Source of the DNA: Gammaproteobacteria bacterium
GTDB taxonomy: Bacteria > Pseudomonadota > Gammaproteobacteria > Pseudomonadales > Azotimanducaceae
Reading direction: 5' to 3'
Assembly: GCA_012269545.1 (NCBI GenBank)
Contig: JAAXKB010000056.1
Span: forward strand, 1 to 64,000
DNA length: 64,000 nt
This document shows, one piece after another, positions 45,171 through 47,373 of this stretch. The notes beneath the pieces are model-generated. The model was not told the origin of the DNA. It was given only the letters and a program-made list of their open reading frames with translations, and made no database searches. The position numbers and the translations under genes were made by a program. Within the stretch, counting starts at the first letter, position 1. Every line of letters begins with the position of its first letter.

Positions 45171-45977
45171 TCAATCGCCTCTAAACTCTCCAGTCTGCTT
45201 GCGTTGCTGAGCGTCAATGGCAGTGCGCCTGTCGCGGGTGCTGGCGGCTAGCAAGTTCTGATCGATGTCCATGTGCATGATAGCGCTGCCCAGGGCATGG
45301 GCCAGTTCGTTCGTAGATTGCTTGATCATTTGAACGGCTATCGGCGGTTTGCTTGCATAGAGATCGGCCATTTCCTGTGCTTTGCTGCTCAGATGCTGAT
45401 CTGTTGTAAGGTGGTCCAAAATTCCCCAGTCGTAAAGTGTCTCTGCCTTTACGCGTTCGCCCCCAGCGACCAAGCGCTTGGTTTTGGCTGGGCCGACCAA
45501 GGCTAATATCAGTGGCAAGCTCTTCCACATGAGATTGATACCCAGATTCACTTCCGGATATTCCATGAATGCGCTGTTGCTGCCGACACGAAAATCGCAG
45601 GCGGTCGCAACGCAGGCTCCGCCGCCCATGGCCGCGCCGCGCCACGCTGCAATCGTGATTTGATCGATGCCCAGAATGGCCTCTATTGCCCGTTGACCCA
45701 TGCGGGCCCTGCGGCGACGTTGTACTAAGGGCATGTCGGCGGGAGCAGCAGCGTCTTGGAGGTCCGCTCCGGATGAGAAATGTTTGCCTGCTCCGGTGAT
45801 GATTATGGCGCGAACCTCGGGTTCGTCACGAAAAGACAGGGCAGCAGTCTCGAGCTCGGCCAGATGGTCGTGGTTCAATGCGTTGGCGCGGTCTGGTCGA
45901 GATAGCGTAATGGTAGCTACGGCATCATTTCGGGAAACGGCCAAGTGTTTGTAGTTGTGAGAGTCCGGGGCAATCAT
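45171..45977 (-). CDS. Enoyl-CoA hydratase/isomerase family protein
   Basis: A 268-residue crotonase. Seen: LSRPDRANALNHDHLAEL, oxyanion region GAGKHFSSGADLQDAA near 63-78, RGAAMGGGACVATACDFRVGS near 115 and MEYPEVNLGINL with a candidate catalytic Glu near 145. It stops directly against the stop of the Rieske-domain gene with no base between. A terminator-like hairpin lies 75 bases before its start on the same strand, discussed under the small RNA; if that is an attenuator it would control this gene. Confidence 0.88.
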   Translation of the reverse strand: MIAPDSHNYKHLAVSRNDAVATITLSRPDRANALNHDHLAELETAALSFRDEPEVRAIIITGAGKHFSSGADLQDAAAPADMPLVQRRRRARMGQRAIEAILGIDQITIAAWRGAAMGGGACVATACDFRVGSNSAFMEYPEVNLGINLMWKSLPLILALVGPAKTKRLVAGGERVKAETLYDWGILDHLTTDQHLSSKAQEMADLYASKPPIAVQMIKQSTNELAHALGSAIMHMDIDQNLLAASTRDRRTAIDAQQRKQTGEFRGD

Positions 45978-46047: not shown

Positions 46048-46082
46048 AAATAAAAAGGCGGAGGATCTTGCGATCCCCCGCC
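46048..46082 (-). terminator. Strong rho-independent terminator on the minus strand
   Basis: On the minus strand GGCGGGGGATC (46082-46072), a GCAA tetraloop, GATCCTCCGCC (46067-46057; one mismatch in 11 pairs), then TTTTTATTT. No annotated gene lies upstream of it on this strand for at least 400 bases, so it ends an unannotated transcript or works as an attenuator. Confidence 0.85.
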
Positions 46083-46198
46083 TTCGAAGGATGGGAACTC
46101 CCGAGGAGGGGAGGGGAGAGGAGTTTCGGAAATTCCCGTATTCCAGCGGGGTGTTGCCACTTGGCCGCCGAATGAAGTCATTGTTACCTCAAGTAACA
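46052..46198 (-). ncRNA. Candidate small RNA with C-rich, anti-Shine-Dalgarno loop
   Basis: Minus-strand element of about 145 bases. From 5' to 3': a 6-bp hairpin TGTTAC / TTGAG loop / GTAACA (46198-46182); a linker; a hairpin with stem AACUCC (46125-46120) and GGAGUU (46101-46096) whose 18-base loop is almost all C and U and holds CUCCCCUCCCCUCC, with repeated CCUCC; then the terminator. A -10-like TGTAAT (46207-46202) lies upstream, with a weak -35. C-rich hairpin loops that pair with ribosome-binding sites are known from several bacterial sRNA families. I do not recognise this one. Alternatives are an attenuator leader for the downstream crotonase gene, or a 46-codon frame (46181 to 46041) that reads through the terminator and is therefore less likely. 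Confidence 0.55.
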
Positions 46199-46207
46199 CG
46201 AATTACA

Positions 46208-46479
46208 AGCATTTTGTGTACTTAAGTAGCTTATTTTTGGAAAAATGCGCCATTTATGTGCTTTGATCGACAAATATCGTCTTAATCAGCGTGATTTTGC
46301 CGGCGAAAAGCGGTTTCGGAATGAAAAATTCGCTGTGTTTAGCGTCTCCACCTCTTTCTTACCACCCTTTTTCATTCCCAAGTCGAGTCATCGCCGATGA
46401 ACGGTGTAGTAACATATGCGGCTTTTCATACGCTGCGCGCGCTGTGCCGCCGTATTCTGTTTTTGATTTAGGAGTTTAG
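46208..46479. other. Intergenic stretch with no recognised gene
   Basis: This stretch lies between the candidate small RNA and the alpha/beta hydrolase gene. A frame from 46291 to 46479 has no ribosome site and no protein-like pattern. AGGAG seven bases before the ATG at 46480 is the only clear signal. Promoters for the two divergent transcripts probably lie here, but I cannot place them. Confidence 0.5.
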
Positions 46480-47373
46480 ATGTCTGCGTTGTCACCCAAC
46501 GGACTTTCCCCGACGTCACACCGATATTTTTCCCAGCGCCTTCGCATGCACTTTGTGGAATGGGGCTCGCGACAGGCACCAACGATTGTTCTAGTTCACG
46601 GTGTGCGGGATCATTGCCGGACCTGGGATGACCTGGTTGGTAGGCTGTCTCGGCATGACGATTACCATTTTGTGGCGCCGGATTTGCGCGGTCATGGTGA
46701 CTCCGATTGGGTGCAGGGGTCGGGCTATCGTTATTTCGATTATCTTTATGACCTCCAGCAACTCATCGAACAGAATGATCTAGGTCCGGTCACGCTAGCG
46801 GGCCACAGTTTGGGTGGCGCAATTGCGTCATTCTTTACCGCCGTCTTTCCCGAACTGGTAAGCAAATTAGTGGTACTTGAAGGCATTGGTTTGTGGTCTC
46901 GTGAGAATGCGGAAGCTGGAATCGCGCAGCAGATACGCGATTGGGCTGAGATCACGCGCACTCTTGCAGGGCGTGAGCCCCGCCGCTATCCAGATTTACA
47001 GACAGCCTATCAGCGCATGCAGGCAGCCAATCCGCGGTTGAGCGAGGCGCAAGCCTTTCATCTTACCCAGCACGGCGCGGTACAACTTGAGGATGGGCAA
47101 TTCACTTGGAAGTACGACCAGTACACCTATAATTTTCACGGCGTTGGTTTGTCTGAAGACGAAATTATTGCGCTCTGGCAAAATATCAGTGTGCCTACGC
47201 TTCTGATCAATGCCGACCAGGGTTTGCAAAATCGCACCGGTCAAGACGACACGCTGCAGTACTTTCGGCGAGCGCAGCTGCACAACGTGACGGCTGCGGG
47301 ACATTGGATACATCACGATCAGCCAGAGGAAGTTACGGCACTGATCGCGGAATTTCTTGGCGGCGAATCCTAG
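46480..47373 (+). CDS. Alpha/beta hydrolase
   Basis: A 297-residue hydrolase starting at ATG 46480 after AGGAG. The nucleophile elbow is GHSLGG with Ser110; the oxyanion loop is VHGVRDHCRTWD near 39; PDLRGHGDSDW follows near 67; the catalytic His is in AAGHWIHHDQPEEV near 275. The family covers esterases, haloalkane dehalogenases and C-C hydrolases, and nothing fixes the substrate. It converges on selU. Confidence 0.88.
   Translation: MSALSPNGLSPTSHRYFSQRLRMHFVEWGSRQAPTIVLVHGVRDHCRTWDDLVGRLSRHDDYHFVAPDLRGHGDSDWVQGSGYRYFDYLYDLQQLIEQNDLGPVTLAGHSLGGAIASFFTAVFPELVSKLVVLEGIGLWSRENAEAGIAQQIRDWAEITRTLAGREPRRYPDLQTAYQRMQAANPRLSEAQAFHLTQHGAVQLEDGQFTWKYDQYTYNFHGVGLSEDEIIALWQNISVPTLLINADQGLQNRTGQDDTLQYFRRAQLHNVTAAGHWIHHDQPEEVTALIAEFLGGES

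What the first reader, a model, noticed from the sequence alone, without database searches (positions are those of the whole stretch)
46048..46207. Unannotated minus-strand small RNA with an anti-Shine-Dalgarno loop
About 145 bases without a good protein gene show a compact RNA architecture: 5' hairpin (TGTTAC/GTAACA), a stem-loop displaying an 18-base C/U loop with repeated CCUCC, and an 11-bp GNRA-loop terminator with a U-run. C-rich loops of this sort in other sRNA families (UCCC or CCUCC loops) pair with ribosome-binding sites. There is no gene upstream on this strand for the terminator to serve. A leader/attenuator of the crotonase gene 75 bases downstream is the main alternative.
Basis: partly seen in the sequence, partly recalled or inferred. 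Interest (0 to 1): 0.75.

Follow-up and report, generated by a model that had tools for sequence, protein, structure and literature searches.

The report
New ribosome-site-pairing small RNA family
A stretch of DNA without a protein gene in a probably marine bacterium very probably makes a small regulatory RNA, of a family not found in the RNA-family library searched, whose exposed C/U loop could block the protein-start sites of metabolic genes.

Summary
The minus-strand element is real, conserved, and very probably an independent small-RNA gene. Its C/U-loop hairpin is present in 55 copies read from 50 genomes of one bacterial family; the stem covaries (96.3% of cells pair; 10 of 12 pairs change on both sides). 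Rfam has no match at its cut-offs.

The '5' hairpin' TGTTAC/GTAACA shows 13 pair-breaking and no compensatory changes in 53 copies and lies 16-17 bases from a TTGC-like box. It is better read as promoter/operator DNA; in 19 genomes the exact motif had 8 matches, all at this locus.

The crotonase-leader alternative fails: in 13 of 54 loci the next gene is a convergent Rieske, MFS or IleRS gene, and seven tandem copies each have their own promoter. In 28 of 54 loci a LysR regulator lies upstream, divergently oriented.

Most likely action, inferred: the loop pairs with Shine-Dalgarno regions. In this genome GAGGGGAGAGG occurs opposite the element and at three other places, each 0-3 bases before an ATG. 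But its count equals a reversed control, and the best target site is not well conserved. No transcript has been shown.

The parts
46203..46208 (-). -35-like box TTGTAA (family form TTGC-like)
   Evidence: A TTGC/TGGC-like box 16 or 17 nt from TAACA in 52 of 53 copies with enough upstream DNA; weak sigma-70 match, not listed by the generic scan
46182..46198 (-).
   Evidence: Near-invariant arms, 13 broken and 0 compensatory cells in the six outer pairs of 53 copies; exact motif at this locus only, 8 of 8 matches in 19 genomes
46181..46186 (-). -10-like box TAACAA overlapping the palindrome (family form TAACAT)
   Evidence: Sequence; fixed spacing to the -35-like box; assignment as -10 is inferred
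46051..46174 (-). Inferred transcript of about 124 nt
   Evidence: Start about 7 nt after the -10-like box and end in the T-run: inferred, no transcript data
46142..46172 (-). Imperfect first stem
   Evidence: Minimum-free-energy fold; this region is variable in length across the family, covariation not tested
46093..46137 (-). 12-bp stem that presents the C/U loop
   Evidence: Fold; 96.3% of 600 cells paired, 10 of 12 pairs with two-sided change in 55 copies
46105..46125 (-). 21-nt loop AACUCCUCUCCCCUCCCCUCC, proposed anti-Shine-Dalgarno seed
   Evidence: Nearly invariant in the 18 genus copies of A1; C/U-rich in all 55 copies of A5
46052..46085 (-). Terminator: 14-bp stem, GCAA loop, T-run
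   Evidence: a strict terminator was found in 30 of 55 copies, many of the other 25 show interrupted hairpins by eye
45171..45977 (-). Crotonase gene (neighbour, not part of the element)
   Evidence: ECH_1 E 6.3e-40; next downstream gene in 26 of 54 loci
46480..47373 (+). Alpha/beta hydrolase gene (upstream, divergent neighbour; not part of the element)
   Evidence: Abhydrolase_6 E 1.2e-22

Best explanation
The element is a free-standing gene for a trans-acting small RNA of about 125 nt. As far as searched, its family is confined to one gammaproteobacterial family, the one that holds the K189A/HTCC2089 clade. It is transcribed from its own regulated promoter, which carries a TGTTAC-N5-GTAACA operator over the -10-like box, and ends at its own terminator. 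A covarying stem presents a C/U loop that pairs with purine-rich Shine-Dalgarno/start regions of mRNAs and blocks their translation. Shown by comparison: conserved gene, hairpin, promoter-like block, independence from the crotonase gene. Inferred: transcription, start site, pairing, repression. In about half of the loci examined a divergent LysR regulator, the likely controller, lies upstream; it was not found in the window's subclade.
For: Hits in 32 of 40 genus genomes (30 upheld on reading) and 57 of 200 family genomes. Covariation: 10 of 12 pairs, 96.3% of cells paired. Promoter-like block in 52 of 53 testable copies; the exact motif at this locus only, 8 of 8 matches in 19 genomes, reversed control 0. 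Convergent Rieske/MFS/IleRS gene next in 13 of 54 loci. Seven tandem copies in three arrays each with its own promoter. GAGGGGAGAGG 0-3 nt before ATG at 3 of 3 places of G000 outside the element. SDR start region -37.5 kcal/mol against -10.0 +/- 4.1 for 52 window genes, best -19.4. GAGGGGAG before ATG 59 against 8 reversed in 8 genomes, control word 60 against 46.
Against: No expression data. The generic scan lists no promoter here. The 11-mer outside the element is no commoner than its reversed word, 6 and 6 in 8 genomes. At ordinary start regions the real loop is hardly better than shuffled C/U loops: mean -9.98 against -9.38 +/- 0.43, 8 of 100 shuffles as good. The SDR site is not conserved in most orthologues read. 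A strict terminator was found in only 30 of 55 copies. G-rich purine words favour Shine-Dalgarno positions anyway.
Confidence: 0.72

Rival explanations
1. The same independent small RNA, but the C/U loop is a decoy or sponge that captures a purine-rich RNA (another sRNA) or an RNA-binding protein, rather than mRNA start sites.
For: C/U anti-SD sRNAs of the alpha-r8 family are themselves bound by a G/A-rich sponge, CrfA (PMC12559287, passages). Candidate mRNA sites are weakly conserved, and the loop is hardly better than shuffled loops at ordinary start regions.
Against: In the window's genome the 11-mer outside the element lies at start codons at 3 of 3 places. No partner RNA was searched for, so this is weak evidence against.
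Confidence: 0.2
2. A leader/attenuator of the crotonase gene 74 nt downstream.
For: The crotonase is the next gene on the same strand in the window and in 26 of 54 loci.
Against: In 13 of 54 loci the next gene is a convergent Rieske, MFS or IleRS gene, and the element with its promoter persists there. Tandem copies have separate promoters.
Confidence: 0.04
3. A gene for a small protein.
For: An ATG frame spans the hairpin in the window copy and in L002-L004.
Against: No spanning ATG frame in L005, L006 and L008 of the same subclade; only 24 of 55 copies have one, mostly with unrelated sequences. The loop length varies and the stem covaries.
Confidence: 0.02
4. Chance fold or a plain terminator without a gene of its own.
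For: The generic scan finds no more terminator-like sites than shuffles.
Against: Fold z -4.9; covariation in 55 copies; promoter-like block in 52 of 53.
Confidence: 0.01

Closest known systems
alpha-r8 family: suhB/MmgR (Rfam RF00519), SisA-D of Caulobacter
   Same: C/U anti-Shine-Dalgarno core (UUUCCUCCCU), terminator hairpin, often several copies (PMC12559287, passages). It is the nearest Rfam model.
   Different: 28.1 bits against a gathering score of 41; of five relative loci only one gave any match, 24.5 bits. Alphaproteobacterial; its 10-mer is described as a single-stranded stretch downstream of a weak hairpin, whereas here the C/U run is the loop of a strong stem.
alpha-r14 family: NfeR1/SmelA075, also called cuckoo RNAs
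   Same: An unvarying C/U anti-SD motif shown by hairpins whose stems drift; NfeR1 is activated by a LysR-type regulator and represses mRNAs at translation starts (PMC10746234 and PMC3927594, passages).
   Different: Three or four hairpins each with CCUCCUCCC; here one C/U-loop hairpin with a longer loop that lacks CCUCCUCCC in the window copy. Alphaproteobacterial. No Rfam match here.
OxyR/OxyS and GcvA/GcvB (recalled, no call)
   Same: A LysR regulator and an sRNA gene that diverge from one intergenic region.
   Different: Different sRNAs and, as recalled, a different GcvA sequence; no homology tested.
B11/6C RNA of actinobacteria (seen only in a search listing; the 6C identity is recalled)
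   Same: C-rich loops, by the listing and recall.
   Different: Actinobacteria; no Rfam match here at the gathering threshold.

Membership tests
suhB/MmgR (RF00519) | Covariance-model score at or above the gathering score of 41 bits | tested here: not met
   28.1 bits in the window; 24.5 bits in one of five relative loci
alpha-r14 / cuckoo RNAs | Three or more hairpins each with a CCUCCUCCC loop | tested here: not met
   One C/U-loop hairpin in the window fold, loop AACUCCUCUCCCCUCCCCUCC; definition from passages
Any family in Rfam 15 | A match at the family's gathering score | tested here: not met
   0 matches in the 64-kb window
cis-acting leader of the crotonase gene | The same gene downstream on the same strand | tested here: not met
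   Crotonase next in 26 of 54 loci only; convergent Rieske/MFS/IleRS next in 13
trans-acting base-pairing sRNA (kind) | Own promoter and terminator, independent of neighbours | tested here: met
   Promoter-like block in 52 of 53 copies, strict terminator in 30 of 55, variable neighbours; by sequence only
trans-acting base-pairing sRNA (kind) | Discrete transcript | not testable with these tools
   No expression data held
trans-acting base-pairing sRNA (kind) | Pairing with and regulation of target mRNAs | tested here: inconclusive
   Strong candidate sites in G000; weak conservation; counts no higher than the reversed control
Hfq-dependent sRNA | Binding by Hfq | not testable with these tools
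   A U-run is present; binding needs an experiment, and the Hfq gene itself was not searched for

The most novel reading that the evidence does not exclude
A dedicated LysR-operator-sRNA switch that acts as a global brake on acyl-CoA and fatty-acid catabolism in this bacterial family. The LysR serves this one promoter through a GTTGC/GTTAC array, and the sRNA silences CoA-transferases, enoyl-CoA hydratases, biotin carboxylase, thiolase partners and SDRs through their GAGGGGAG start regions. In the window's subclade the RNA has outlived the loss of its regulator.
Probability: 0.2. Interest if true: 0.75.

Novelty: new member of a known kind. Interest (0 to 1): 0.55.

Why it matters
It adds a well-supported small-RNA family, with a conserved promoter found at this locus alone in the genomes searched, to a little-studied bacterial lineage. 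My paper searches (open PMC only, listings only, poorly targeted) listed no report of it. It looks like the 'constant C/U loop on a drifting stem' design outside the alphaproteobacteria, possibly of independent origin, and gives a concrete test of whether one loop can control a set of catabolic genes.

Tried and rejected
Rejected: crotonase leader, small protein, chance fold, membership of an Rfam family, 5' hairpin as RNA.

The SDR gene as a conserved target was not upheld. Matches at E<=1e-60 lie in 22 of 40 genomes, 23 loci; the script printed the start region of 19 of the 23 loci, own copy included, and by eye only a few have long purine runs (G039's is the clearest).

Functional trend of GAGGGGAG-ATG genes: 49 of 59 sites open a frame of at least 60 codons; Pfam gives SDR 6, CoA-transferase III 4, ECH 4, biotin carboxylase 4 and ChsH2-type OB 4 of 49. 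For the control word GAAGGAGA I read 30 of its 60 sites, 18 with such frames: ECH 2, ribosomal protein S17 2 and others. A trend only: the background of such genes was not measured, orthologues are counted repeatedly, and 4 of the G001 sites repeat others on duplicate contigs.

Order-wide scan with model R2: 5 of 390 genomes (strict filters); the one outside the family, G244, is a terminator with a C-run in its loop and no such promoter by eye. Plasmid collection: no match. The exact-pattern scan of genome contigs gave 37 stretches: 15 have the promoter-like and terminator flanks and one (L038) is cut short; these 16 have titles with Gammaproteobacteria, Pseudomonadales, Proteobacteria, K189A or HTCC2089; the other 21 look like chance. 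A first alignment mixed strands and was redone.

Rows dropped: L015 (cut short) from A1; L133, L137 and L138 (no promoter, other neighbours) from A5, so 55 of 58 places were kept and L109's bounds were set by hand; L015 and L122 from the promoter count (too little upstream). L124 lacks the -35-like box, and its value was left out of the spacer counts.

Full report
WHAT IS THERE. On the minus strand the element reads: a TTGTAA box (46208-46203), a 17-bp palindrome TGTTAC-TTGAG-GTAACA (46198-46182) whose right half overlaps a -10-like TAACAA (46186-46181), an imperfect stem (46172-46142), a 12-bp stem with a 21-nt C/U loop (46137-46093), and a 14-bp GCAA-loop terminator with a T-run (46085-46052). 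Its fold is much more stable than shuffles (z -4.9, 0 of 200). The next gene downstream, 45977-45171, is a crotonase; upstream and divergent is an alpha/beta hydrolase, 46480-47373.

CONSERVATION. Blastn found matches in 22 of 97 relatives (own genome included) at E<=0.1, several of them short and doubtful. Oriented alignment of 18 copies (17 of them from that search, one) showed an almost invariant C/U loop and changing stems. Model R1 then matched 32 of 40 genomes of the genus (19 of 21 good ones) and 57 of 200 sampled genomes of the family, in 11 of 37 genera; the family sample includes genus members. I read 40 further stretches. The hits in G023 and G038 and the second hit in G026 lack the promoter and the neighbourhood; leaving them out, 30 of 40 genus genomes remain. 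Of the 30 hit genomes outside the genus I read 20, and all 20 have the promoter-like block. Two of the eight genus genomes without a match, G005 and G035, carry the LysR neighbour, partial in G005 and 240 bases from a contig start in G035, so the miss may be due to assembly. In an order sample 5 of 390 genomes matched; four are of the genus and the fifth is unconvincing. The clade name comes from titles of records that hold the same contigs, one titled K189A clade and one HTCC2089 (lineages).

STRUCTURE. In 55 copies from 50 genomes (50 distinct rows) the 12-bp stem pairs in 96.3% of 600 cells against 86.0 +/- 0.7 in shuffles. It has 70 cells with two-sided change against 20.9 +/- 3.5, and 10 of 12 pairs with such change; no slid version passes 57.5% paired. 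Shuffles ignore relatedness. The loop stays C/U-rich, about 19-26 nt in the script's hairpin search.

THE '5' HAIRPIN' IS MOST LIKELY DNA. In 53 copies the arms of the palindrome are near-invariant. Of 318 cells in the six outer pairs, 13 break pairing and none is compensatory; the seventh pair is unpaired in 24 of 53. A TTGC-like box lies upstream with a spacer of 16 (42 copies) or 17 (10 copies); one copy, L124, has no such box. The C/U hairpin begins about 15 to 128 nt after the palindrome. The pattern TTG-N7-TGTTAC-N5-GTAACA has 8 matches in 19 genomes, each at this locus, none for the reversed control; it does not catch copies with other spacing. A GTTGC-N5..7-GCAAC-like palindrome lies further upstream in 30 of 53. 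I infer a dedicated, regulated promoter. The boxes are weak sigma-70 matches and the generic scan did not list them, which would fit an activator-dependent promoter.

INDEPENDENCE. Across 54 loci (three of them the doubtful hits above) the next downstream gene is the crotonase in 26, a convergent Rieske, MFS or IleRS gene in 13, another convergent ORF in 11 and another same-strand ORF in 4. Names come from Pfam on one member of each cluster; 'other' ORFs were not annotated and may include spurious frames. G021 has three copies in a row, G017 two in a row plus one on another contig, and G039 two; the seven copies in these arrays each have the promoter-like block. A strict terminator was found in 30 of 55 copies, and in 6 of the 7 array copies. 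A crotonase leader is excluded for the family and very unlikely here.

REGULATOR. A LysR-type gene (HTH_1 E 5.9e-20), divergent from the RNA, lies upstream in 28 of 54 loci and is the immediate neighbour in 26. A search with one such protein at E<=1e-20 found it in 7 of 16 chosen genomes and in none of the 8 of the window's subclade, of which G000 is 99% complete and three are 68-81% complete. The subclade's upstream sequence also lacks the GTTGC palindrome in the alignment. That LysR controls the RNA is inference from position; OxyR/OxyS and GcvA/GcvB are recalled precedents.

TARGETS. Complement of the loop in this genome with up to 2 mismatches: two overlapping matches opposite the element, two overlapping matches at one place over the Shine-Dalgarno and AUG of an SDR gene, and three matches elsewhere that I did not link to a start; the reversed control had 4. 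The 11-mer GAGGGGAGAGG occurs four times in G000: opposite the element, and 0-3 nt before the ATG of a 271-codon SDR, a 341-codon amidohydrolase and a 304-codon SDR (starts are predicted). In seven relatives there are nine matches: six opposite the element, one (G024) at the start of an ECH-type gene, one before a 35-codon frame, one not at a start. Outside the element that makes 6 matches, the same as for the reversed word (6), so only location speaks for targets, and purine-rich words favour such locations anyway. Duplex energies: SDR -37.5, SDR304 -26.3, amidohydrolase -24.4, ECH -21.9, biotin carboxylase -19.5, against a mean of -10.0 (sd 4.1), best -19.4, for 52 window genes; at those 52 starts the real loop (-9.98) is hardly better than shuffled C/U loops (-9.38 +/- 0.43; 8 of 100 as good). 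GAGGGGAG-N1..8-ATG occurs 59 times in 8 genomes against 8 reversed, GAAGGAGA 60 against 46; G001's count is inflated by four duplicate sites. Genes after GAGGGGAG lean to acyl-CoA metabolism, a trend without a measured background. The SDR site is not conserved in most of the orthologue starts read.

COMPARISON. Rfam has no match at its thresholds in the window; the nearest is suhB/MmgR at 28.1 bits against 41. Its C/U anti-SD 10-mer and multicopy habit are similar (PMC12559287, passages). Alpha-r14/NfeR1 shares loop-displayed anti-SD motifs and drifting stems (PMC3927594 and PMC10746234, passages) and LysR control (PMC10746234). Neither membership test is met; the working principle is probably the same. 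Searches for earlier reports listed nothing on this element; only listings were seen, and mainly ranked general sRNA papers.

VERDICT. An unannotated sRNA gene of a new family of a known kind; anti-Shine-Dalgarno action is likely but unproven.

Noticed in passing
L133 (G023:C8:7490-7599) and L137 (G038:C38:10970-11075): Model hits with a similar hairpin and terminator but no GTTGC/GTTAC promoter and with other neighbours, in front of a 508-codon gene; a paralogue or a convergent element.
   Followed up: partly
Subclade of the window (G000, G001, G011, G012, G020, G024, G029, G030): The LysR gene that lies beside the RNA in other genus members was not found, while the RNA and its palindrome remain.
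   Followed up: partly
L119, L120, L121 (G021, G039, G017): Tandem arrays of two or three copies with diverged loops, each with a promoter-like block.
   Followed up: partly
G001 contigs C25/C47, C25/C49, C26/C46, C42/C60: Near-identical target sites on different contigs of one genome: probably redundancy of that assembly (listed with 7% contamination).
   Followed up: no
L274 (G244:C2:259453-259492): A terminator with a C-run in its loop in another family of the order; no such promoter by eye, probably unrelated.
   Followed up: partly
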